Source of the DNA: Phycisphaerales bacterium UBA2421
GTDB lineage: Bacteria; Planctomycetota; Phycisphaerae; Tepidisphaerales; Tepidisphaeraceae
Length of the DNA: 42,588 bases
NCBI GenBank assembly: GCA_002343075.1
Contig: DDRH01000052.1
Span: 1-42,588 of the forward strand
Reading direction: 5' to 3'
Program-made: the position numbers and the translations under genes
In this document: positions 28,281 through 40,573 of the stretch, piece by piece
Position numbering within the stretch: position 1 is the first letter of the stretch
Layout of the letters: each line of letters opens with the position of its first letter
Notes under the pieces: generated by a model
Databases searched by the model: none
The model's input: the letters and a program-made list of their open reading frames with translations, nothing else
Told to the model about the DNA's origin: nothing

Positions 28281-29396
28281 GTGAACACCGATCCCAAGAC
28301 CATCTTCTTCGCCGGCGGCGGCACGGGCGGGCATCTGTTTCCGGGCATTGCGGTTGCTCAGGCGCTGGTGACGCGTGATGCGTCGCTCAAGCCCGTGTTT
28401 CTTTGCACGGAGCGAGAGTTAGACAGAACGATTCTCGATCCGACAGGGTTTGAACGCATCACCCAACCAATCGTACCGCCGGCGCGGTCGATTGGGGGGT
28501 TGCTCAAGTTCTGGAGGGCGTGGCGAGAGACTAAGGACCTCGTCAAGTCGCTTTTGCGCGACCGCAAACCCGCTGTGGTGCTCGGCTTGGGCGGGTACGC
28601 GGCCGGTGTTGCGGTGAAACTGGCCGGCGGGCGGAATGTGCCGACTGCAATTCTCAACCCGGACGTGATTCCCGGCAAGGCAAACCGATACCTGATGCAA
28701 TCTTCGCGCATCATCTGTTGCCAGTTTGAACAGACCGCTGAGCATGTTTCGGTGTCGTATCGAGACCGGTTGCGCGTTACCGGTTGCCCGATTCGTGCTG
28801 ATCTGGCCAGCTTGCCGACGCGAGAAGAGGCAGCCAAACGGCTCGGTCTTGACCCGCGTGGGCTGAACCTCGTTGTTACCGGTGCCTCACAGGGCGCGCT
28901 GACGGTGAATGAGGCCGTTCTCGAGGCATTGAAGTCGATCAAGTTGCAGGGGTGGCAGATCATTCACCTGACCGGTAAAGACCATGCCGATTCTGTGAGG
29001 CAGGAGTATCGTGAGCTGGATCGAGTCGCTCGCGTGATCGACTTCACGGAGCAGATGCGCGACATCTGGGCTGTGGCTGATTTGTGCATCAGCCGTTCGG
29101 GCGCGAGTACATGCGCCGAACTGACCGCCGCCGCCGTGCCGAGTATTCTGATGCCTTATCCATTTCATGCCGACATGCACCAGCGTGCCAATGCCAGAGT
29201 GTTAGCCGACGCCGGTTGCGCCGAATTGCTGGACGATAAGAAAGACCGTCGTCGCAATGCTGAATTATTGAAGCCGGTGTTGGAAAAACTGCTTTATGAC
29301 GCCACCGCTCGATCAGATATGAGCCAGAGGGCGCGGGCGCTGGCAAAGCCCGATGCCGCTGAACGCGTTGCCGAGGAACTTTTGGGGATGCTGTGA
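28281..29396 (+). CDS. murG: UDP-N-acetylglucosamine transferase MurG
   Basis: This is a GT28 glycosyltransferase of about 371 residues that turns lipid I into lipid II at the inner face of the membrane. The N-terminal FFAGGGTGGHLFPGIAVA is the diagnostic GGTGGH loop. LGLGGYAAGVAVKLA, VTGCPIRADL, TGASQGALTVNE and the UDP-GlcNAc-binding SRSGASTCAELTAAAVPSILMPYPFHADMHQRANA (read in sections) follow. I start at the GTG at 28281, three residues before the conserved strand. A TTG at 28218 would add 21 unrelated residues. It closes the plus-strand wall operon and converges with dnaE2. Confidence 0.93.
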   Translation: MNTDPKTIFFAGGGTGGHLFPGIAVAQALVTRDASLKPVFLCTERELDRTILDPTGFERITQPIVPPARSIGGLLKFWRAWRETKDLVKSLLRDRKPAVVLGLGGYAAGVAVKLAGGRNVPTAILNPDVIPGKANRYLMQSSRIICCQFEQTAEHVSVSYRDRLRVTGCPIRADLASLPTREEAAKRLGLDPRGLNLVVTGASQGALTVNEAVLEALKSIKLQGWQIIHLTGKDHADSVRQEYRELDRVARVIDFTEQMRDIWAVADLCISRSGASTCAELTAAAVPSILMPYPFHADMHQRANARVLADAGCAELLDDKKDRRRNAELLKPVLEKLLYDATARSDMSQRARALAKPDAAERVAEELLGML

Positions 29397-29478
29397 TTCG
29401 CGTTGCCACGATTTTGGGGCGGCAGGGCGGATTGTAAGTAGACAGCGAACGACGATCTGTTTTCCGAGCGCTTGCCTC

Positions 29479-32400
29479 TTAGTGGAAGTCGCGGGAAGAA
29501 AGTTCAAAGCCGCGAATGAGTTCGCTGCGGTCGAACAGCCGCTTGGCCATGACGTGCAGCACCTGCCCTTGTCGCTCGACGTAACCATCACACTGCAGCA
29601 GCGCCGCGTGCCGGGCTGCGGGGCGGTATTGGTCGTAAACGTTGGGCCTGACAATCAGGTTGACCACACCGGTCTCGTCTTCCAGTGTGATGAACACAAT
29701 TCCGCTTGCGGTTCCCGGTCGTTGTCGGATGAGCACCAGTCCTGCAACGCGTGCGAACCGACCATGTTTGATTTGTGATAGCTCACTTGCGGTGAAGATC
29801 TTTTGCCTCGTCAGCACGCTGCGCACCAGCGACAGAGGGTGCGCTTTGAGTGAAAGGCTGGTTGTGGCGTAATCGGTCATTACTTCCTGCCCGAGAGGCA
29901 TGATGGGAAGCGACGGAGCGACGGAGCGACGAAGCGACGAAGGGAGTTCATCGAGCAGCGGTGTTGCTTTGTCTGTGAGTTCTAGGGATTCCCACAGTGC
30001 TTCTCGGCGCGAGAGTTTAAGCGATGAAAATGCATCTGCTTCAGCCAGGCTACGAATTGCCTGGGTTGGAAGTCGCGTACGTGATTGAAACTGGGCAATG
30101 TCTTTGAATGGCCCGTGAGAAAATCTTTCAGCAATAACCTGCTGGGCAAAGGCCTCACGAAAACCTTTGACCAGCCGCATTCCCAAGCGGATCGCCGGCC
30201 CGTTCCGATGAGTCAACAGATTCTCTGTCCCTTCGTCGCTCCGTCGCTTCGTCGCTTCGTCGGTATGTCTCCCCTCTTCATCACCCTCTTCCAACGTGCA
30301 ATCCCACTCACTAAAGTTTACATCCACTTCGCGGACTTCCACGCCGTGGTCGCGGGCGTCGCGGATGATTTGGGCGGGTTGATAGAAGCCCATCGGCTGG
30401 CTGTTAACAAGCGCCGCAGCGAAGACGGCGGGGTGGTGGCATTTGAGCCATGCGCTGACGTAAACCAGTATCGCAAAACTGGCCGAGTGCGACTCGGGAA
30501 AGCCGTATTCGCCAAACCCTTTGATTTGTTCAAATGTCCGCTGGGCAAAGTCGTGTGTGTAGCCATTTCGCAACATGCCTTGAATGATTCGATCCTGAAA
30601 GTGCAGCAACTTGGTGCTCTTTTTCCATGCCGCCATCGCCCGACGCAGTTGGTCCGCCTCGGCGGCGGTAAAACCTGCAGCGACCATCGCAACCCGCATC
30701 GCCTGCTCCTGAAAAAGTGGCACACCTAAAGTCTTGTGCAGCACACGTTTAAGTGCCTCGGAAGGATAGACCACCGGCTCTTCGCCGTTCCGGCGGCGCA
30801 GATAAGGGTGAACCATATTCCCCTGAATCGGCCCGGGACGAACGATCGCCACTTCAATGACAAGATCGTAAAAACTCCGCGGCCGCAACCGCGGCAACAT
30901 GCTCATCTGAGCCCGTGACTCGATCTGAAAAACGCCGATCGTATCGGCATTACAAATCATGTCGTAAACGGCGGGGTCGTCGGGGGGTATGGTGTGGAGT
31001 GAGAAGCAGCGAAGGGGAGAGGTAGAGCGACGAAGCGACGAAGCGACGGAGCGACGAAGGGGGGGAGGTGAAATAGGGCGACCACTGGAAGATTCGGGTG
31101 TTACTATTCTTTCTTCTGTTCTAAGCTTCGAATCAGGCCCTGTAGTACGCGATCTACCTCCTCCAACAAAGCGATCGTTGTTTCGTCTTTTGAAATCATT
31201 TTCATTGAGCACGCAATCTCGAACTGCATCATAAGCTCTGCAAGTGAGCCCCGTGCAGTCCTCAAAAACCGGATGTAGTCCGGACGACTTTGTCTGGCAT
31301 GACCTTCGGCAATGCTGGATGGAATCGAAACCGCCGCTCGTCGCATCTGATTCGTCAACCCAAATCGCTCGTCGGCGGGCATCTTCGCGGTCACTCGATA
31401 GATAAGTAGACTCAGTTCCATGCTCTTTTGCCAAGCAATCAAGTCTCTGAATGTTCGCACGGTTGCCATGAACTGTGTCTCCGAGAGTCAAGGTTACTAC
31501 CTGTTCCCCCCCTTCGTCGCTCCGTCGCTTCGTCGCTTCGTCGCGTCTCTCCAGCATACCAAACGCCTTCGAGATACAGCTAAGCATCCCCAACCCCAGG
31601 CAATCCACTTTGAGTATGCCTAGCTCCTCAATATCGTCTTTGTCCCACTCGATGACCGTACGATTTTCCATCGCGGCGTTTTCTATTGGCACGACTTCGC
31701 ACAGCGGGCCGCGGGTCATTACCATTCCGCCGACGTGTTGGCCTAAATGTCTTGGAAAGCCGAGCAGTTCGCTGGCCAGGCTCAGGACGCGTTTCACGTT
31801 TGGGTCATTCGGGTCGAGGCCGGTTTCGCGCACCATCGCGTCATTTAACACCCCGCGGTGCCACCAATCGAGCTTTTTGGCCATGGTGTCGACCATGTCA
31901 AGGCTGAGGCCCAGCGCCTTGCCCACATCGCGAATGGCCGACCGCCCGCGATAGGTAATCACCACCGCCGCCATGCCGGCGCGGTCTCGGCCGTACTTGT
32001 TATAGAGATACTGCAACACTTCTTCGCGGCGTTCGTGTTCAAAATCGATATCGATATCCGGATACTCATTCCGCTCGGCGGAGATAAATCGCTCAAACAG
32101 CAGATCAATCTTCGACGGATCCACGCTGGTAATCCCCAGGCAATAACAAACCGCACTGTTAGCGGCGCTACCCCGGCCCTGACAAAGAATGCCTCGAGAA
32201 CGGGCAAATTTGACGAGGTCGTAAACGGTCAGAAAGTAAGCCTCGAATTTCAGTTGCTCGATGAGCTTGAGTTCGTAGTTGATCAAATCACGTATCTTCT
32301 GAGGGATGATTGGAAGGCACGAAGGCGCGAGCGCACGGAGGCACGGAGAAGAAGCGTTGTCTTCAGATTCTTGCACTGAATCTCTACCTTTGCCGTGCCT

Positions 32401-33483
32401 CGGTGCCTCCGCGTTTTCTTGCCCGTTTTCTCCAAACTTTTCGCGTGCCCCAGCCCACGCCAAATCTCTCAGATACGTCGTGGCGGACTTTCCCTCCGGC
32501 ACCAGTTCGTCGGGGTATTCATACTTCAGTTCAGACATCACAAAGCTACACCGATTCGCAATCTCCACCCCCGCGCACAGTGCCTGTGGGCACGCAGCGA
32601 ACAGGCGGTGCATTTGCTCGGGCGACTTCAGATATCGCTCGGCGTTGGGGAACAGGTTGTAGCCTGCCTGACCGATAGTGCATTTTTCCCGCACGCTGAC
32701 GAGCACATCCTGCAAGCTACGGCGGGCCGGATCGTGATAGTGAACGTGATTGGTCGCCAGCAGCGAGAGTCGTAATGATTGCGAAAGCGACACCATCCGA
32801 GACAGATCGGTTTCATCATCGCCGGAATAGGCAAGGGAAACGGCGAGCCAGATGCGGTCGGCAAATACCCGGCGTAAATCTGAAACTCTAAATCCGAAGT
32901 CCGAATTAAATCCGAATGACGAATGACGAAAGACGAGCTTTTGAGGGTCGTGTTCTTCGACGTTCGTCATTCGAGCTTCGTTATTGATTCGGATTTCAGG
33001 TTTTAGGTTTCGGGCTTGGGTCGTTGCGCTGATCGTTTTCTCGTCAATGGCGATTAACAACCCTTCATGCAATCCCAGCAGATCCCCGACTCCTAACTCA
33101 CACTTTCCCTTCTCCGTTCGTCGCTTACCGATGGTGAGAAGTTTGCACAGGTTCCCGTAGCCCGTTCGGTTCATGCACCAGACGAGAATGTCCGGCATGC
33201 CGTCGGCGAATTGCAGCCGGGAGCCGACGATCAGCTTCATGCCGCATTCTTTCGCTGCGGCGTGGGCGCGCACCATGCCGGCGAGGGTGCACACGTCGGT
33301 TAACGCGATCGCGCGGTAGCCGAGGTTGGCGGCGGTGTAGACGAGTTCGTCCGGGTGGCTTGCCCCGCGCAAAAATGAGAAATTGCTGATTACATCAAGC
33401 TCGGCATAACCCAATTCACAACGAGCCACCGCGGCAGGCGGCGGCATGGGGTCGCGAAGTTTGAAGCTGGGGGATTCGGGCAT
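29479..33483 (-). CDS. dnaE2: Error-prone DNA polymerase DnaE2 (ImuC) with several in-frame palindromic inserts
   Basis: This is a C-family polymerase of about 1334 residues, longer than usual. It has an N-terminal PHP domain (YAELDVISNFSFLRGASHPDEL). Catalytic Asps lie in YPDIDIDFEHERREEV (about 32029-32070), with a third in LKVDCLGLGML (about 31580-31620). FGEYGFPESHSASFAILVY and a C-terminal OB domain complete it. With ImuA and ImuB it forms the mutagenic translesion system. The excess length comes from inserts encoded by palindromic elements at 29905-30263, 31012-31548, 32312-32430 and 32888-33012, lying between conserved blocks. The frame stays open through all of them. I start at the ATG at 33483. 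A GTG at 33513 lies inside a hairpin element. No ribosome binding site is evident. Confidence 0.93.
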   Translation of the reverse strand: MPESPSFKLRDPMPPPAAVARCELGYAELDVISNFSFLRGASHPDELVYTAANLGYRAIALTDVCTLAGMVRAHAAAKECGMKLIVGSRLQFADGMPDILVWCMNRTGYGNLCKLLTIGKRRTEKGKCELGVGDLLGLHEGLLIAIDEKTISATTQARNLKPEIRINNEARMTNVEEHDPQKLVFRHSSFGFNSDFGFRVSDLRRVFADRIWLAVSLAYSGDDETDLSRMVSLSQSLRLSLLATNHVHYHDPARRSLQDVLVSVREKCTIGQAGYNLFPNAERYLKSPEQMHRLFAACPQALCAGVEIANRCSFVMSELKYEYPDELVPEGKSATTYLRDLAWAGAREKFGENGQENAEAPRHGKGRDSVQESEDNASSPCLRALAPSCLPIIPQKIRDLINYELKLIEQLKFEAYFLTVYDLVKFARSRGILCQGRGSAANSAVCYCLGITSVDPSKIDLLFERFISAERNEYPDIDIDFEHERREEVLQYLYNKYGRDRAGMAAVVITYRGRSAIRDVGKALGLSLDMVDTMAKKLDWWHRGVLNDAMVRETGLDPNDPNVKRVLSLASELLGFPRHLGQHVGGMVMTRGPLCEVVPIENAAMENRTVIEWDKDDIEELGILKVDCLGLGMLSCISKAFGMLERRDEATKRRSDEGGEQVVTLTLGDTVHGNRANIQRLDCLAKEHGTESTYLSSDREDARRRAIWVDESDATSGGFDSIQHCRRSCQTKSSGLHPVFEDCTGLTCRAYDAVRDCVLNENDFKRRNNDRFVGGGRSRTTGPDSKLRTEERIVTPESSSGRPISPPPLRRSVASSLRRSTSPLRCFSLHTIPPDDPAVYDMICNADTIGVFQIESRAQMSMLPRLRPRSFYDLVIEVAIVRPGPIQGNMVHPYLRRRNGEEPVVYPSEALKRVLHKTLGVPLFQEQAMRVAMVAAGFTAAEADQLRRAMAAWKKSTKLLHFQDRIIQGMLRNGYTHDFAQRTFEQIKGFGEYGFPESHSASFAILVYVSAWLKCHHPAVFAAALVNSQPMGFYQPAQIIRDARDHGVEVREVDVNFSEWDCTLEEGDEEGRHTDEATKRRSDEGTENLLTHRNGPAIRLGMRLVKGFREAFAQQVIAERFSHGPFKDIAQFQSRTRLPTQAIRSLAEADAFSSLKLSRREALWESLELTDKATPLLDELPSSLRRSVAPSLPIMPLGQEVMTDYATTSLSLKAHPLSLVRSVLTRQKIFTASELSQIKHGRFARVAGLVLIRQRPGTASGIVFITLEDETGVVNLIVRPNVYDQYRPAARHAALLQCDGYVERQGQVLHVMAKRLFDRSELIRGFELSSRDFH
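29905..29945. repeat. 8-mer array, arm 1 of an inverted pair in dnaE2
   Basis: Four tandem units, GCGACGGA twice and then GCGACGAA twice (29910-29941), are flanked by GGGA. Read in the dnaE2 frame they encode SSLRRSVAPSLP. The inverted partner is at 30228-30263. Confidence 0.85.
30228..30263. repeat. 8-mer array, arm 2 of an inverted pair in dnaE2
   Basis: The units TTCGTCGC, TCCGTCGC, TTCGTCGC and TTCGTCGG (30232-30263) read in the dnaE2 frame as DEATKRRSDEG. This is inverted relative to 29905-29945. The 280 or so bases between the arms encode ordinary DnaE2 sequence, so this pair encloses host gene rather than foreign DNA. Confidence 0.85.
31012..31548 (-). mobile_element. IVS-like cassette inside dnaE2: perfect inverted repeats around an S23-family gene
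   Basis: The left arm (31027-31065) is GCGACGAA, GCGACGAA, GCGACGGA, GCGACGAA and seven G. The right arm (31506-31544) is its exact reverse complement, 39 of 39 bases. The 440 bases between them hold a complete S23-family gene. The whole insert lies between the DnaE2 blocks ISKAFGMLE and CFSLHTIPPDDPAVYDMI. It reads open in the host frame, adding about 175 residues. Intervening sequences in 23S rRNA genes have the same make-up: a terminal stem plus an S23 gene. Here the host is a protein gene. Confidence 0.8.
31104..31469 (-). CDS. Four-helix-bundle protein, S23 / 23S rRNA intervening-sequence family
   Basis: This encodes 121 residues matching the IVS-encoded S23 family: an N-terminal FRDLIAWQKSMELSLLIY helix, then the signature GLTNQMRRAAVSIPSSIAEG, YIRFLRTARGSLAEL, and a last amphipathic helix with a Lys-rich tail. 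The fold is a pentamer-forming four-helix bundle related to the Avd protein of diversity-generating retroelements. Its cellular role is not settled. The gene lies in the same orientation as dnaE2 but in another frame and has its own GGAG nine bases before the ATG. It is fully enclosed by the 39-bp inverted repeats. No reverse transcriptase or variable repeat is nearby. Confidence 0.82.
   Translation of the reverse strand: MATVRTFRDLIAWQKSMELSLLIYRVTAKMPADERFGLTNQMRRAAVSIPSSIAEGHARQSRPDYIRFLRTARGSLAELMMQFEIACSMKMISKDETTIALLEEVDRVLQGLIRSLEQKKE
32312..32430. repeat. Palindromic GGCACGGA-type element in dnaE2
   Basis: The left arm (32312-32350) carries degenerate GGCACGAA/GGCACGGA units. The right arm (32389-32430) carries GTGCCTCG/GTGCCTCC units. 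Read in the dnaE2 frame it adds a peptide beginning EAPRHGKGRD and ending PCLRALAPSCLP, a worn copy of the RHGG...CLRASVPPCLP peptide seen in imuB. Confidence 0.8.
32888..33012. repeat. Palindromic AATCCGAA / ATGACGA-type element in dnaE2
   Basis: The left arm (32888-32938) carries AATCCGAA-like units and then ATGACGA 7-mers. The right arm (32948-33012) is the inverted version, ending in TTCGGATTT and TTTCGGG. It is read in the dnaE2 frame between the PHP segments. The 7-mer would give a TGA if tandemly read on one strand, and the arm read in that sense is degenerate, which keeps the frame open. Confidence 0.75.
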
Positions 33484-33490
33484 CTTATAG

Positions 33491-33570
33491 AAGGCACTGA
33501 GGCACATAGGCACGAAGAGGGAAAAAGCGATAGTCTATTCACCTCGTGCTTGTGTGACTCCGTGCCTGGG
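33491..33570. repeat. Palindromic GGCACGGA-type element between imuB and dnaE2
   Basis: The arms at 33491-33518 and 33540-33568 pair imperfectly (GGCACTGA, GGCACATA and GGCACGAA against the inverted GGCACGGA, GTCACACA and AGCACGAG). It fills the imuB-dnaE2 junction and overlaps the alternative upstream start codons of dnaE2. It could therefore influence translation of the polymerase. Confidence 0.7.
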
Positions 33571-35502
33571 TTAAAATTCCCCTTGCCAAAACCACCGTCC
33601 ACTTTCATTCACACGGAAGATCCACCATCGACGGGTGTTGGGAAGTTCGATGTCGAAGTAGTCGCGTGATTTGTTATGGCCGTTCCACCATTCCCCGCAG
33701 ATGCGCTCGGGGCCAACGGCGTATACCACACGATGTACCGCGCCGTCCGGGTCGGTCACGCTCACGGGCCGGCCGTCGCGGTCGTGCGATGGGCTGACGA
33801 TGACGCGGAGTTCGGTGGGATGACGAAGCCACAGCGGGCGTGTAGGCAGGCACGAAGGAGAAGAGAGCGAAGTAGTGCCTGCTTTCACTTCGTGCCTGCG
33901 TGCCTTCGTGCCTCCGTGCCTATCTTCACTTCCTTCATCCCTTGCGCAGTATTCAACTCCCTTCTCCGGCAAATGCGACTCCACCGGCGTGACTTGTATG
34001 ACCGCCGATTGATCCATGCGCACGCGCAACCGTTCAATCAGATCATCAAGTTCCCTGCGGGCTTCGATGGTGTCGCTCTGGCCGAGTTCAATCTGCTCGG
34101 TCACCATCCGCTGGGAGTGCCCGATGTTAAAATCGATCGAGATGAAGCCGTTGTAATCGAATGCCGAAAGGTCGGAAGGGACGGATGGGAAGGTACGAAG
34201 GCACGCAGGCACGGAGGCACGGAGGGAAGATTTCGAAGCCGATCCGCCGGTCGTCTCAGCCAGCAAAATACATGAACCTGCTTGCCTTCGTGCCTCCGTG
34301 CCTCCGTGCCTCCGTGCCTCCACATTTCCAAGCGATTGCTGTAGCAACTCAAAAATTCGTTTCGGATCGCGTGTCGGCCGAGAAAAACGGATGGTTCGCC
34401 GGATCGGCTCTCCCAGTGCCAGGCGCAGCGTCGCTTCCATTTCCCGCGCGCCGTGTCCTCGGCGGAGCAGTTTTGTTGCCAGATCATCAATCAATTCCCT
34501 TGTGATCGGCCAAATCAAATCCAGGTTTTCCACCGGCTCTTCCCAGCGGCGGCGGGCTGTGATTGGGAAGGTGGGTTCGAGAGGCATCAGCGGTTCTTCA
34601 ATCAGGCCGTCAAACTGATTCAACCTCATCAGCAGCATCGATCCAAACCGTGCCGATAACTGGTTCCGCGGCAGCTTGCGAAGCTGGCTGATGGTGTGAA
34701 TTCCCACATGGTGCAATGCCGCAACAGTGTCGGCGGGCAGGCGGAGGGAATGAATGGGAAGGGTAGGAAGGCAGGGAGGCAGGGAGGCACGGAGGCACGA
34801 AGTGAAAGCAGACACTTTTTCGCTCCCGGCATCCCCTACTTCCCCTGCGTGCCTGCGTGCCTTTGCGCCTCCGTGCCTGTCTTTAGCTTGATAAAACGTC
34901 ATCGCCCAGGCCGCGCCGGGAGTGGGGGCTATGGCCAGCCTTGCGGTTACGCTCCATCGTCGAAGAGAGGCTTCAATGGTTTGGTGGATTCGTTCCGCCG
35001 GGCCGAAGAGCCTTTCGGTGCCGGTCAGGTCGAGCCAGATTCCTTCAGGTTGCGCCTGTTCCTGTTGGATGAGGGAAACACAGGGCGAAAACCGCATCAT
35101 CCATCGAGCCAGTGCTTCCAGAGCCATCGAGTCACGGTGCGGTTCGTGCTCGACATGTTTAACCTGCGCGTGGAGCGCGCGGGCCTGCGCGAGTGTCATG
35201 CCCGGCTTAATCCCCCGTTGCGCCGCCGCCACCGAGACGGCGAGAACTATCTGCCGGTTGGCGATGGTTCGGATGATGACAACGGAAAGGAGACGCGAAT
35301 TGGGGGGGAGGCACAAAGGCACGGAGGCACGGAGGCACGAAGTGAAAGTTGATGTGCTTTCGCTTGCTTCATCAGATTCTTCCCCTTCGTGCCCGCGTTC
35401 CTTTGTGCCTGCGTGCCTGTCCTTAAGCAGTTTCCCATCGAGCCGCCGCAAAACTCGGTCCACGGGCCAATTGAGCAGTCGCACGCACAAGATTGTTTTC
35501 AC
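33571..35502 (-). CDS. imuB: ImuB, inactive Y-family polymerase-like mutasome protein, with four in-frame palindromic inserts
   Basis: This is a 643-residue Y-family-like protein. The start is a GTG behind GGAGAGG. The N-terminus (KTILCVRLLNWPVDRVLRR) aligns with the palm strand of DinB/UmuC but lacks the catalytic Asp, as in ImuB generally. IKPGMTLAQARAL and WLDLTGTERLFG are typical, followed by the helix-hairpin-helix (TVAALHHVGIHTISQLRKLP) and little-finger regions. ImuB links ImuA, DnaE2 and the sliding clamp. Four inserts from palindromic elements (33843-33921, 34186-34321, 34755-34883, 35302-35425) add peptides of 30-45 residues beginning DRHGGTKARRH-like and ending CLRASVPPCLP-like. 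The first 80 bases overlap imuA. Confidence 0.9.
   Translation of the reverse strand: MKTILCVRLLNWPVDRVLRRLDGKLLKDRHAGTKERGHEGEESDEASESTSTFTSCLRASVPLCLPPNSRLLSVVIIRTIANRQIVLAVSVAAAQRGIKPGMTLAQARALHAQVKHVEHEPHRDSMALEALARWMMRFSPCVSLIQQEQAQPEGIWLDLTGTERLFGPAERIHQTIEASLRRWSVTARLAIAPTPGAAWAMTFYQAKDRHGGAKARRHAGEVGDAGSEKVSAFTSCLRASLPPCLPTLPIHSLRLPADTVAALHHVGIHTISQLRKLPRNQLSARFGSMLLMRLNQFDGLIEEPLMPLEPTFPITARRRWEEPVENLDLIWPITRELIDDLATKLLRRGHGAREMEATLRLALGEPIRRTIRFSRPTRDPKRIFELLQQSLGNVEARRHGGTEARRQAGSCILLAETTGGSASKSSLRASVPACLRTFPSVPSDLSAFDYNGFISIDFNIGHSQRMVTEQIELGQSDTIEARRELDDLIERLRVRMDQSAVIQVTPVESHLPEKGVEYCARDEGSEDRHGGTKARRHEVKAGTTSLSSPSCLPTRPLWLRHPTELRVIVSPSHDRDGRPVSVTDPDGAVHRVVYAVGPERICGEWWNGHNKSRDYFDIELPNTRRWWIFRVNESGRWFWQGEF
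33843..33921. repeat. Palindromic GGCACGGA-type element in imuB (copy a)
   Basis: A short arm (33843-33858) faces a long arm (33888-33921) of GTGCCTGC, GTGCCTTC and GTGCCTCC units. It encodes DRHGGTKARRHEVKAG and SPSCLPTRP in ImuB. Its core GCACGAAGTGAAAGCAG is on the minus strand, opposite to copies c and d. Confidence 0.82.
34186..34321. repeat. Palindromic GGCACGGA-type element in imuB (copy b)
   Basis: The arm at 34186-34226 (GGTACGAA, GGCACGCA, GGCACGGA, GGCACGGA) faces the arm at 34281-34321 (TGCCTTCG and three GTGCCTCC units). In ImuB it encodes EARRHGGTEARRQAG and then SSLRASVPACLRTFP. Confidence 0.85.
34755..34883. repeat. Palindromic GGCACGGA-type element in imuB (copy c)
   Basis: The arm at 34755-34806 (GGCAGGGA twice, GGCACGGA, GGCACGAA) faces the arm at 34840-34883. 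The core GGCACGAAGTGAAAGCAG is shared with copies a and d. In ImuB it encodes DRHGGAKARRHAG and ends SCLRASLPPCLP. Confidence 0.85.
35302..35425. repeat. Palindromic GGCACGGA-type element in imuB (copy d), touching the imuA stop
   Basis: The arm at 35302-35348 (GGCACAAA, GGCACGGA twice, GGCACGAAGTGAAAG) faces the arm at 35380-35425. In ImuB it encodes DRHAGTKERGHEG and ends SCLRASVPLCLPP. Its outer edge (CCTGTCCTTAAGC, compare CCTGTCTTTAGC in copy c) includes the TAA that ends imuA. Confidence 0.85.
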
Positions 35503-36223
35503 GGCACCTCTCCAAAAAAATGGATTCTCCGACTTGCCCTCCGTGGCCATGAAGTAATGTGAGTTTCCAGCGGTGAATGGTTCTTTCGCCGCGTGCAGGT
35601 TCAACAAGCCAACGTGTGGCGGCGGCGTAGATTTCACTTCCTCGTGTCATCGGACGCATAATGATTCCCATCCCTCCGCCGCGTTCGGCAGCCAACTGCA
35701 GCCGACGGACGTCGTTGCGATGAAGCCGCGCCGGCAACTGAGTCACCGTCACGCCCACCCCTTTACATCGCAAACACTCGGCGGCGGCCCACAACGCTTC
35801 CTGTTCCGTGCGAGGATGCAGAATCCACAGGTCATGCGGGTTGATACCCGCAGCGAATAGAGCAGGGGGGTAGAGGGTGTGGGTGGCGTCGGACCAGATG
35901 ATGGTGGGAGAAGTGCAAAGACTGAGAGGCCGAGAGACGGAGAGAGAAAGTGAGTGTGCGCAAGCCTGGTCTTCCACTTCGTCTCTTTTTCTCTTCGTCT
36001 CTTTCTCTCTGAGTTGAAGAAATATCGCTGCCACTGCATATGGCCGCGGATGCTCGTGCTTAAACAGCAATTCATGCACCGCTCCTTGCGTCAGCCCGCC
36101 GGCGGGGAGCAGGGCGTCGAGCAAGGGTAAGCCCGTTTGTTGCCCCCGCGGGCGCGCGGCATCCGTCCAAGCCGACTCCGCGGTCTCGATTAATTGGCCG
36201 TTATGGGCGGTGATGAGTTTCAT
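35423..36223 (-). CDS. imuA: ImuA, RecA-like mutasome protein, with one in-frame palindromic insert
   Basis: This encodes 266 residues with the ImuA/SulA-like RecA fold: an N-terminal TGLPLLDALLPAGGLTQGAVHELL, where a degenerate Walker A loop sits, then IIWSDATHTLYPPALFAAGINPHDLWILHP, then EALWAAAECLRC and a basic C-terminal part. ImuA works with ImuB and DnaE2 in SOS-type mutagenesis. About 30 residues (REKETKRKRDEVED... SLSLSVSRPLSL) come from a palindromic element at 35917-36013, between conserved strands. It is the first gene of imuA-imuB-dnaE2 and overlaps imuB by 80 bases. Confidence 0.85.
   Translation of the reverse strand: MKLITAHNGQLIETAESAWTDAARPRGQQTGLPLLDALLPAGGLTQGAVHELLFKHEHPRPYAVAAIFLQLREKETKRKRDEVEDQACAHSLSLSVSRPLSLCTSPTIIWSDATHTLYPPALFAAGINPHDLWILHPRTEQEALWAAAECLRCKGVGVTVTQLPARLHRNDVRRLQLAAERGGGMGIIMRPMTRGSEIYAAATRWLVEPARGERTIHRWKLTLLHGHGGQVGESIFLERCRENNLVRATAQLARGPSFAAARWETA
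35917..36013. repeat. Palindromic GAGACGGA-type element inside imuA
   Basis: The arm at 35917-35952 (GACTGAGA, GGCCGAGA, GACGGAGA) is followed by AAAGTGAGTG and GCGCAAGCC, and then by the inverted arm at 35976-36013 (CTTCGTCTC repeated). It is read in frame by imuA. It is nearly the same sequence as the copy at 36232-36330. Confidence 0.85.
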
Positions 36224-36231
36224 TGTTTAAG

Positions 36232-36330
36232 AAGAGACTGAGAGACTGAGAGACGGAGAGAGGAAGTGAGTGGCGCAAGCCGTCTTCCGCTTCGTCTCTT
36301 TTTCTCTTCGTCTCTCAGTCTCTCTCCCTT
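36232..36330. repeat. Palindromic GAGACGGA-type element just upstream of imuA
   Basis: The arm at 36232-36267 (GAGACTGA twice, GAGACGGA, GAGAGGAA) is followed by GTGAGTGGCGCAAGCC and then the inverted arm at 36281-36330. It lies nine bases from the imuA ATG and would form a strong hairpin in the 5-prime leader of the operon. Confidence 0.85.
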
Positions 36331-36347
36331 CCTGTTCGCATAAAGTT

Positions 36348-36377
36348 AGGTTATTCTTTCAATCCTCCCGTCGTCAA
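36348..36377 (-). promoter_or_regulatory. Candidate promoter of the imuA-imuB-dnaE2 operon
   Basis: On the minus strand TTGACG (36372-36377) and TAACCT (36348-36353) are separated by 18 bases. This would start a transcript just before the leader hairpin at 36232-36330. The -10 match is weak. Confidence 0.3.
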
Positions 36378-36403
36378 TAATTTTCGGATTTGATTTGTTT
36401 TGC

Positions 36404-36418
36404 TGTGAAAATCTCACA
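36404..36418. promoter_or_regulatory. Perfect inverted repeat TGTGA-N5-TCACA upstream of the imu operon
   Basis: This short dyad lies about 30 bases upstream of the candidate -35 box of imuA. It could be an operator. It does not match the E. coli LexA box. The regulator is unknown. Confidence 0.35.
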
Positions 36419-36624
36419 ACAGTTTGAGACTTGTAAATTAGTTCACCACGCATGCTTGACGCATCGGGTTCGGCGGCTAACCTACATCTCGTTGGGCGAT
36501 TTGAGCGCAGATTGCGGCCCGTGATGCTCCCAAGCTTCACAAATTGCTAAAGAGCGGCAGAAAGACTGCCACGGCTACGCCGACCCTTCGGCGTGACCGA
36601 TTCCCTTTCGTTTAGCACTCCCGC

Positions 36625-38500: not shown

Positions 38501-40573
38501 ATGCCCGGCATTGATGTGACAGCACTTTCATTTGACGAACTCATCGCCCGCGAATGGCTGATCACCAACGGTGCCGGGGGATATGCTTCTTCGACCGTTC
38601 TTGGTCTGAACACTCGGAAATATCACGGCTTGCTCGTGGCGGCGATGGCGGCACCGGTGCGGCGGATGGTCATCCTCTCTCGTGTTGAAGAAACCGTAAC
38701 CGTCAATGGACGCAGTTCGGCGCTGGCGACAGTGGAATATCCCGGCGTGGTTCACCCCGCGGGGCATCCGCTCATCAGGGCGTTTACCGCAACGCCCTAT
38801 CCCCGCTGGGCGATTCAGGGTGAAGGCTGGACGATCGAAAAGAGCGTGCGATTCTCACCATCCGGCGAGAATGATCTGCTTATCACCTATACCGTCCTCG
38901 CCAGCGACGCCCCCGTTCATTTGCGCGTGAGGCCGCTGTTTGCGCTGCGGGGCATCCACGACCTGATGTATCAATGGTCGGGCCGCCTCGAAGCAGAGGT
39001 TTCGACCGAGATGCCCGGCAGGGTGCGCATCGCCGCCACCGCGCGCACGCCCGAGGTACACATGGCGCACGATGGCATTTTCGATGCCAAGCCACTCTGG
39101 TATCTCTCCACCCTTTACCGGCGCGAGCGAGAGCGTGGCTATGCGGCACTGGAAGACCTCTGGACGCCCGGCGAGGTCGCATTCACGCTGCAACTCGGCC
39201 AGACGGCAAACTTCGCAGCGGCCGTGCAGCCGGTGGGTCTGGAGAACGTGCTTTCGGCCTGCTCTCAAGCGGATATTCAGGAAGAACACCGCCCGCCATG
39301 CCGGGTCTCTGCCCTGAGTGACCAAGCGATTGGGCAAAAGCTATCGCACATGGTCGATCAGTTCGTCTCCGCAGCCCCGCCGGTGGTTGGGGGTCGTTGT
39401 TGGTCATGCATTGTGCCTCAATATCCGTGGACCGCATGGGCTGTGCGCGACACGCTCATCGCATTCCCCGGTGCGCTGCTCGTTACGGGCAAGTTTGCAC
39501 TTGCCAGGGCGCTGCTCGCCACGCTCGCAGGGCTGGTGCGCGATGGGATTACTCCCTCGGAGATCGACGAAGCCGGTGGCGAGCCGGCGTACAATGCCTG
39601 CGACACATCACTTTGGCTCATTAATGCCATCTGGCTCTACCTGATTCACTCTGGCGACGAGGCAGCTGTCCGACAACTGTTTCCCACGGTTCGCCAGATC
39701 ATTGAGCGATATCAAGCCGGCACCGCCTTGGGCATCGCAGTCAACGGTGATGGCCTGCTCCGCGTGCGAGCGGCTGGCGTTGGAAGTACCTGGATGAACT
39801 CAAAGCTGAACGACTGGGTCATCACCCCGCGCAATGGTCGTCCGGTGGAGCTGAACGCGCTCTGGTACAACGCACTCTGCATCGCGCGAGAGTTGGCGTT
39901 TCGCTTTGATGATGCACCCCTCGCCCGGCAATACGCCGCAACCGCCGAGCAGCATCGTGCTGACTTCAATCAGCGCTTTTGGAACCCGCTCGCCAACTGC
40001 TGTTATGACGTTGTGAATGATGCCGGGGAAGACGCCTCAATTCGGCCCAACCAACTCCTCGCCGCTTCGCTGCCGTTTGCCGTGCTCGCCGAAGTCCGGG
40101 TGCCGGAGATGCTCGATACGGTTCGCTTTAAGTTGCTTACCCCGCTCGGCTTGCGCACGCTCGACGCCGGCGACCCCAATTACCAGTGCCGATACGCCGG
40201 CGACGTGGCGGCGCGCGACCGCGCCTACCACCAGGGGTGTATTTTCCCCTGGCTTCTCGGCCCCTATTGTGCCGCGATGGCCAAAACGCAAGGCCCGTGG
40301 CCCGCAGCGGCCGAGGCGATTCGCCGGATCGTCACGGGGCTGGTCGAATATGTGCTCGGCAACGGGCTTAACGTCGTCCCCGAACTGTTCGATGGCGATG
40401 CCCCGCACAAACCCGGCGGCGCCGTCTCCGATGCCCGCGCCGCGGCGGAGCTTAACCGGGTCTGGCACGAACATATTCTCGGTCGGCATATTCTCGGCCG
40501 GCCCGATGCGCACGCCCCGACCGGGCAACACACTGCCCCCGCCGGGCAGGCTCGCTCCCGTGGCAGGGCCTGA
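38501..40573 (+). CDS. Glycogen debranching enzyme (amylo-alpha-1,6-glucosidase family)
   Basis: This encodes 690 residues. The N-terminal domain begins REWLITNGAGGYASSTVLGLNTRKYHGLLVA, the hallmark of bacterial/archaeal GDE-type proteins, and is beta-rich. The C-terminal (alpha/alpha)6 glucosidase domain has YPWTAWAVRDTLIAFPGALL, PSEIDEAGGEPAYNACDTSLWLINAIW, and ELNALWYNAL. It should hydrolyse alpha-1,6 branch stubs in glycogen or related glucans. The last 30 residues (ILGRPDAHAPTGQHTAPAGQARSRGRA) are Pro/Ala/Gly-rich and look like an extra tail. It lies 120 bases before gnd on the same strand. Together they suggest storage-glucan use feeding the pentose phosphate pathway. Confidence 0.9.
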   Translation: MPGIDVTALSFDELIAREWLITNGAGGYASSTVLGLNTRKYHGLLVAAMAAPVRRMVILSRVEETVTVNGRSSALATVEYPGVVHPAGHPLIRAFTATPYPRWAIQGEGWTIEKSVRFSPSGENDLLITYTVLASDAPVHLRVRPLFALRGIHDLMYQWSGRLEAEVSTEMPGRVRIAATARTPEVHMAHDGIFDAKPLWYLSTLYRRERERGYAALEDLWTPGEVAFTLQLGQTANFAAAVQPVGLENVLSACSQADIQEEHRPPCRVSALSDQAIGQKLSHMVDQFVSAAPPVVGGRCWSCIVPQYPWTAWAVRDTLIAFPGALLVTGKFALARALLATLAGLVRDGITPSEIDEAGGEPAYNACDTSLWLINAIWLYLIHSGDEAAVRQLFPTVRQIIERYQAGTALGIAVNGDGLLRVRAAGVGSTWMNSKLNDWVITPRNGRPVELNALWYNALCIARELAFRFDDAPLARQYAATAEQHRADFNQRFWNPLANCCYDVVNDAGEDASIRPNQLLAASLPFAVLAEVRVPEMLDTVRFKLLTPLGLRTLDAGDPNYQCRYAGDVAARDRAYHQGCIFPWLLGPYCAAMAKTQGPWPAAAEAIRRIVTGLVEYVLGNGLNVVPELFDGDAPHKPGGAVSDARAAAELNRVWHEHILGRHILGRPDAHAPTGQHTAPAGQARSRGRA

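What the first reader, a model, noticed from the sequence alone, without database searches (positions are those of the whole stretch)
31012..31548. An rRNA-type intervening sequence sits inside a DNA polymerase gene
A complete S23/four-helix-bundle gene with its own ribosome binding site is enclosed by a perfect 39-bp inverted repeat in the middle of dnaE2, in the same orientation but another frame. S23 genes are known from intervening sequences in 23S rRNA, where a terminal stem is cut by RNase III and the rRNA stays fragmented. In an mRNA such cutting would destroy the message, yet the insert is readable in the dnaE2 frame across about 175 codons, keeping the polymerase reading frame intact. 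Identical arms point to recent arrival or upkeep. The cassette would be a gene-in-gene: the same RNA could give the S23 protein, a longer DnaE2, or split halves of DnaE2.
Basis: partly seen in the sequence, partly recalled or inferred. Interest (0 to 1): 0.93.

Follow-up and report, generated by a model that had tools for sequence, protein, structure and literature searches.

The report
Readable S23 element inside DNA polymerase
In planctomycete-type bacteria a complete small gene (S23) lies inside the gene of a mutation-prone DNA polymerase, same strand but another reading frame, between two mirror-image repeats, and no stop signal interrupts the polymerase's frame, so it is likely a selfish insert that the host can read straight through.

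Summary
A complete S23 gene lies between perfectly complementary 40-nt arms of 8-bp tandem repeats, inside an intact dnaE2 frame, on the same strand in another frame. It is not peculiar to this strain. In 27 dnaE2 copies defined by homology of both flanks S23 always lies sense; 26 keep the dnaE2 frame open across the insert, and the exception breaks just upstream of S23. Within nested S23 genes, codons that would create a stop in the host frame are absent (0 of 565 pairs, against 430 of 1934 in neutral contexts), while the conserved protein is S23 (56% identity in its frame, 28% in the host's). Similar inserts lie in an amidohydrolase, type III methylases and BREX PglX. S23 genes of several phyla carry inverted arms of mostly 7- or 8-bp arrays (112 of 146, against 5 of 339 control positions). 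S23 and dnaE2 trees conflict in 3 of 5 tests; arms tend to match the genome's own repeats. Best reading: a probably mobile hairpin element that carries S23 and survives in genes by being translatable in the host's frame. rRNA-like cutting of the message is not supported as its main fate. How it moves and what S23 does are untested.

The parts
31505..31544 (-). upstream arm of the element (5' side in dnaE2/S23 sense), array of GCGACGAA/GCGACGGA
31104..31469 (-). S23 / four-helix-bundle gene, 121 aa, own ATG with GGAG upstream
31027..31066 (-). downstream arm, perfect reverse complement of the upstream arm
29479..33513 (-). dnaE2, error-prone DNA polymerase, open through the whole element (host frame = S23 offset +2)
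30227..30262 (-). single array of the same 8-bp family, read in frame in dnaE2 (aa about 1084-1096), no S23
29907..29942 (+). single array of the same 8-bp family in dnaE2 (aa about 1191-1202), no S23
32315..32423 (.). S23-less imperfect palindrome (75% complementary) with GGCACGGA-type arms in the dnaE2 loop aa 364-402, the loop that holds an S23 in G380 and G384
32882..33011 (.). S23-less imperfect palindrome (73% complementary) of another repeat family in dnaE2 (insert aa 158-205)

Best explanation
A 518-bp hairpin element, a complete S23 gene between 40-nt perfectly complementary arrays of 8-bp repeats, sits in a loop of dnaE2 and leaves the polymerase frame open through its whole length, so that one message would give both S23 and a DnaE2 with about 170 extra residues; it is likely a mobile selfish element. 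Shown: the anatomy; S23 at the same loop in 24 other dnaE2 copies and at a second dnaE2 loop in two; sense orientation throughout; absence of host-frame stops in 26 of 27; constraint on the S23 frame; conflict between S23 and host trees in part of the tests; arms that tend to match each genome's own repeats. Inferred: S23 is translated from the host message through its own Shine-Dalgarno; the extra segment is a tolerated surface loop; selection removes synonymous S23 codons that would stop DnaE2; the cassette is exchanged between loci through its arms, which pair with arrays already dispersed in the genome. Which enzyme moves it is unknown.
For: Nested by homology of both flanks: 27 dnaE2 + 1 amidohydrolase of 176 distinct S23, 28 sense, 0 antisense; frame kept and stop-free in 26 of 27 dnaE2 and in the amidohydrolase. 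Codon test 0 of 565 against 430 of 1934; un-nested genes 511 of 2770 against 2347 of 9136. Five un-nested members of the same S23 clade have 4, 1, 2, 2, 4 stops in that frame. Identity at S23 codon positions 0.642/0.716/0.405; protein identity 0.563 in the S23 frame, 0.280 in the host frame. Arms: 112 of 146 against 5 of 339 controls. Mobility: L211/L224 hosts 88% identical, S23 47%; one-clade rejected in 3 of 5 host-defined groups; two S23 in one dnaE2 in G384, probably also in G380; same clade in an amidohydrolase. Arms against the genome's repeats: Mann-Whitney p 0.007 and 0.006 (counts). DnaE2 motif PDxDxDF in 25 of 25 main-loop copies.
Against: No expression data. The 27 dnaE2 cases are related, so they are not 27 independent trials. 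Two of five AU tests, the window's own family among them, do not reject shared descent; the groups were named after the first S23 tree had been seen, and only 4 of 33 inner branches of the tested tree are well supported. Host and S23 identity do correlate weakly (Spearman 0.29). An empty site with target duplication was not found. No mobility enzyme is tied to it: RVT_1 in 9 of 20 and Y1_Tnp in 19 of 20 carriers, and G037 (completeness 100) has neither. Arms do not always match: G380 and G483 have 45 and 35 GCGACG hits though their S23 arms are of other types. Un-nested S23 genes also use fewer T-ending codons before AA/AG/GA (18% against 26%), so part of the effect is general. One copy (L230) has lost the frame.
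Confidence: 0.74

Rival explanations
1. An rRNA-style intervening sequence: the arms pair in the mRNA, RNase III cuts there, and DnaE2 is made as two halves or not at all.
For: The arms pair in the predicted fold of the RNA; S23 and terminal stems are features of 23S IVSs, which RNase III excises (PMC4990558, passages).
Against: Obligatory cutting would remove the need for an open frame, yet 26 of 27 copies keep it and stop-making codons are absent. No rRNA or intron match near it.
Confidence: 0.1
2. A domesticated gene-in-gene: S23 works with its host protein, for instance as an Avd-like helper of a polymerase, and is kept for that.
For: Same loop in 25 dnaE2 copies; S23 frame under constraint; fold resembles Avd, TM 0.74 at E 0.03.
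Against: The same kind of insert lies in hydrolase, methylase and PglX genes; 20 of 24 relatives' loci that cover the loop lack it; S23 appears exchanged at the site.
Confidence: 0.09
3. One ancient insertion inherited with dnaE2; S23 merely evolves fast and the arms turn over by gene conversion.
For: All dnaE2 S23 in the tree lie in one clade, 98/97; Spearman 0.29 between host and S23 identity, p 3e-7; no rejection in the window's family or the g25 pair.
Against: Three host clades are rejected for S23; host 88% against S23 47% in one pair; S23 of the clade also in another loop, another gene and un-nested places.
Confidence: 0.12
4. Chance: dnaE2 is decaying or GC-rich DNA stays open by itself.
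For: Codon usage alone would leave some copies open (P up to 0.58 for single genes); L230 is broken.
Against: Summed log10 P of no stop is -29 under host codon usage (related genes); only 9 of 135 un-nested S23 are open in that frame; catalytic motif kept in 25 of 25.
Confidence: 0.02

Closest known systems
23S rRNA intervening sequences (IVS) with S23p, e.g. Coxiella, Leptospira (PMC4990558, passages seen)
   Same: S23 gene between complementary ends that form a long terminal stem; sporadic; mobility suspected
   Different: Here in protein-coding genes, with arms made of 7-8 bp tandem arrays and an open host frame; no rRNA
Rickettsia palindromic elements (recalled; only listings seen)
   Same: Palindromic inserts that stay in frame in protein genes
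   Different: Those carry no gene (recalled); here a complete overlapping gene is carried
Heptameric G-rich arrays of Xanthomonas and Nostoc (PMC4692102, passages seen)
   Same: 7-bp arrays, some of them noted as inverted repeats
   Different: That paper generally found no association with mobile elements, and 'S23' does not occur in its main text
Avd of diversity-generating retroelements
   Same: Four-helix-bundle fold (4dwl E 0.03, 8ub7 E 0.04, TM 0.74); bAvd profile match E 3.6e-5 but under its cut-off
   Different: No reverse transcriptase in the element; no RVT_1 match in 11 of 20 carriers

Membership tests
23S rRNA IVS | encodes S23p | tested here: met
   PF05635 E 7.6e-34; Foldseek 2gsc E 1.9e-8
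23S rRNA IVS | complementary ends forming a terminal stem | tested here: met
   (stem predicted)
23S rRNA IVS | lies in a 23S rRNA helix | tested here: not met
   lies in dnaE2; no rRNA match in window 29000-36500
23S rRNA IVS | excised by RNase III | not testable with these tools
   needs RNA work
palindromic element of the Rickettsia type | palindrome read in frame within a protein gene | tested here: met
palindromic element of the Rickettsia type | short and without a gene (recalled) | tested here: not met
   carries S23
intein or self-splicing intron | intein domain or intron RNA in the insert | tested here: not met
   no such Pfam match in DnaE2; no intron match at E up to 0.5
diversity-generating retroelement | reverse transcriptase beside Avd | tested here: not met
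   own RVT_1 matches lie on other contigs (C17, C7), none on C66

The most novel reading that the evidence does not exclude
S23 genes are the cargo of a pan-bacterial class of mobile elements whose ends are inverted 7-8 bp tandem arrays, and one branch of it lives inside protein-coding genes by dual coding: the codons of the passenger gene are chosen so that the host can be translated straight through it. The rRNA intervening sequence would be the special case that landed in rRNA.
Probability: 0.5. Interest if true: 0.95.

Novelty: new variant of a known kind. Interest (0 to 1): 0.86.

Why it matters
S23p is described as having no known function (PMC4990558, passage). Here the gene is found with array-built inverted ends in several phyla, and it shares DNA with genes that look functional under a measurable rule: in nested copies no S23 codon ends in T before a codon that starts AA, AG or GA. 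That makes its mobility and function testable outside rRNA, and suggests a way in which a gene-carrying insert can stay in an expressed gene without splicing. It also puts slippage-prone 8-bp arrays (not a multiple of three) into a mutagenic polymerase, which could switch it on and off; that is untested.

Tried and rejected
A reverse transcriptase or a Y1 transposase as the mover: RVT_1 in 9 of 20 carriers; Y1_Tnp in 19 of 20, in 11 of them with a best E under 1e-20; neither in G037. A Y1 transposase acting in trans is therefore possible in most carriers but not tied to the element.

Antisense nesting: three long antisense open frames (L068, L092, L135) have no Pfam match, so they are not counted as host genes. 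Sense frames over L148 and L181 have no family either. In L134 the methylase match starts after the S23, so it is not claimed as nested inside a domain, though it was put with the nested set.

A clean empty site: L019 (same genus as L065 and L209) has an S23-free loop, but by eye the loops are too unlike to show a target duplication; no formal alignment of the three was obtained, since one search failed before it.

S23 in rRNA: 20 un-nested S23 loci (20 of the 30 loci) gave no Rfam match at gathering score. In window 29000-36500 only microRNA models and one snoRNA model matched, all under their gathering scores.

S23-less hairpins in the same dnaE2 loops of relatives: found in some (L009, L016, L024 main loop; L007, L013, L029 at aa 1065-1115; L016 at aa 352-412), not in most. 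Of 10 own-genome array places outside the window, chosen, three had array-type inverted repeats of score 14 or more (L037, L040, L060), so most look like single arrays rather than palindromes.

Literature: (open-licence PMC only, judged by titles and starts of abstracts) listed no paper that describes S23 genes inside protein-coding genes. Papers opened, passages only: PMC4990558, PMC4692102, PMC3919608, PMC12926913, PMC4679880.

Full report
What is there. The window's dnaE2 (29479-33513 minus, 1344 aa) is an error-prone DNA polymerase by NCBIfam (1411.9 bits, cut-off 939), with PHP, alpha, finger and HHH domains. Between its residues 660 and 837 lie 528 extra nucleotides. They hold an S23 gene (31104-31469, PF05635 E 7.6e-34) between arms 31027-31066 and 31505-31544 that are 40 nt long and perfectly complementary. 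The arms are 8-bp arrays, GCGACGAA/GCGACGGA. In E. coli Pol III alpha the same place is residues 577-584 of chain 5fku_A. S23 is on the dnaE2 strand; the dnaE2 frame is its +2 frame. As RNA the arms pair (-223.1 kcal/mol, z -9.4). The S23 model (mean pLDDT 93.6) matches the solved S23 proteins 2gsc (E 1.9e-8) and 2rld (E 2.7e-4), and less strongly Avd (E 0.03).

It is not a single case. A search of 61 genomes with this DnaE2 and an alignment of 26 relatives' loci showed inserts of S23 length at the same loop in four; 20 others that cover the loop lack one. A protein search with residues 655-845 of this DnaE2 gave nine proteins: the window's own, seven other DnaE2 and one amidohydrolase. A search with S23 found matches in 265 of 397 genomes of the class and 124 of 294 of the phylum; genome contigs gave 33 named loci from several phyla. 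The loci that I held are not a random sample: the 30 best, the 33, 27 further best ones and 80 regions picked from the list. They hold 176 distinct S23 genes. Nesting was defined by homology of both flanks, not by an open frame. 27 lie in dnaE2 and one in an amidohydrolase, all sense, none antisense; two more showed one flank only. 25 of the 27 are at the main loop; two are at loop aa 354-410. G384 has both sites filled in one gene; G380 has a second S23 at the main loop whose far flank lies beyond the fetched stretch.

The host frame is protected. In 26 of 27 dnaE2 and in the amidohydrolase the insert is a multiple of three and stop-free in the host frame. In the exception, L230, the upstream host frame closes and the downstream one opens within about 75 nt before S23, where the upstream arm lies, while its S23 is still stop-free in the +2 frame; a slipped 8-bp unit or an assembly error could explain it. 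A stop in the +2 frame needs an S23 codon that ends in T before a codon starting AA, AG or GA. In the 28 nested genes such pairs number 0 of 565, against 430 of 1934 where no stop would arise; in 135 un-nested genes the figures are 511 of 2770 and 2347 of 9136 (11 genes with other spanning frames and the two one-flank genes were left out). Part of the drop is thus a general context effect, the total absence is not. Redrawing synonymous codons by host usage gives P(no stop) 0.004 for the window and a summed log10 P of -29 over 27 genes; these are related, so the sum overstates independence. Five un-nested S23 of the same clade (L096, L101, L212, L215, L227; no spanning sense frame) have 1-4 stops there.

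S23 is the selected product. Among 25 main-loop genes identity at S23 codon positions 1, 2, 3 is 0.642, 0.716, 0.405; protein identity is 0.563 in the S23 frame and 0.280 in the host frame. SD-like sequence precedes the start in 31 of 38 nested and 87 of 134 un-nested genes with a start found (of 137), against 305 of 1760 random places (the 38 add ten genes with other evidence of nesting, L134 among them). The polymerase motif PDxDxDF is present in 25 of 25.

The arms define the element. Of 146 testable S23 genes (149 distinct, from 145 of 147 loci) 112 have inverted flanks of score 15 or more, against 5 of 339 random places in the same loci; the arms have period 7 in 84, 8 in 23 and another in 5. 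The window genome's two other S23 genes, which that count missed, also have array arms. In the larger set the score reaches 15 in 34 of 38 nested and 101 of 135 testable un-nested genes; nested elements have period 8 or 7 in 25 and 9 cases, un-nested ones in 16 and 79 (p 3.9e-9); arms free of stop triplets on either strand are 22 of 34 and 30 of 101. In 20 carriers (of 24 carrier genomes with handles) genomes whose S23 arms are GCGACG-type hold more such arrays (p 0.007; 0.008 with six hits taken off for the element's own arms), and likewise GGCACG-type (p 0.006; 0.037). Exceptions are G380 and G483, rich in GCGACG arrays with other S23 arms, and G618, richest in GGCACG arrays.

Mobility is inferred. 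The dnaE2 S23 form one clade (98/97) with the amidohydrolase one and five un-nested ones. Within it host and S23 agree poorly (Spearman 0.29, 300 pairs); L211 and L224 have hosts 88% and S23 47% identical. Holding S23 of host clades together is rejected for f3 (p 9e-5), f105 (0.005) and f14 (0.016), not for the g25 pair (0.20) nor for the window's family f1 (0.30). The groups come from the host tree but were tested after the S23 tree had been seen, so the p values are somewhat too small. The window's own S23 may thus have been in place since its family's ancestor, while arms in that family differ (GCGACGAA in G000 and G019, GGCACG-type in G012 and G024). Perfect arms then mean upkeep rather than recent arrival.

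Other hosts. Open sense +2 frames run through S23 in BREX-1 PglX at two sites (L102, L104, L107 in Gammaproteobacteria; L113 in an Akkermansiaceae bin and L115 in an unclassified bin). NF033452 scores are 1363.8, 814.9, 485.6 and 1173.9 bits for L102, L107, L113, L115, cut-off 500; L113, cut by a contig end, falls just short; L104 matches PADLOC PglX. Type III methylases hold it in L079 and L086 by PADLOC, and in L080, the near copy of L079. These were picked by their open frame, so their openness is not independent evidence; their orientation and frame are. No sense +1 case was seen among frames that span S23 by 200 nt or more.

Verdict. A selfish, probably mobile hairpin gene that persists in coding DNA by dual coding. 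Its parts resemble IVSs and palindromic elements, but it meets neither definition in full.

Noticed in passing
window 33571-36330: The neighbouring IMS-domain gene (33571-35637; imuB by recall) and the stretch after it hold more palindromes with GGCACGGA- and GAGACTGA-type arms (34185-34325, 35309-35418, 36233-36323); those inside the gene lie in its open frame.
   Followed up: partly
L216 (G380) and L219 (G384): Two different S23 elements in one dnaE2 in G384 (two loops); G380 probably likewise, the second at the edge of the fetched stretch.
   Followed up: yes
L230 (G508): dnaE2 frame broken just upstream of S23, where the upstream arm lies; possibly a repeat-unit slip or an assembly error.
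   Followed up: partly
L102, L104, L107, L113, L115: S23 elements inside BREX-1 PglX methylase genes at two different sites, in an open sense frame.
   Followed up: partly
L079, L080, L086: S23 elements inside type III methylase genes, from two different S23 branches.
   Followed up: partly
L002 (G000:C20) and L003 (G000:C27): The genome's two other S23 genes are also bracketed by inverted arrays of other sequence (GATGAGT and GAACGATGAATG types); the one in L002 has an internal TAG.
   Followed up: partly
L065 (G037) and L209 (G544): Same genus, dnaE2 flanks 82% identical in DNA, but S23 69.5% and arms of different repeat families.
   Followed up: yes
window 40472-40502: A separate 15-bp tandem repeat, 2.1 copies.
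   Followed up: no
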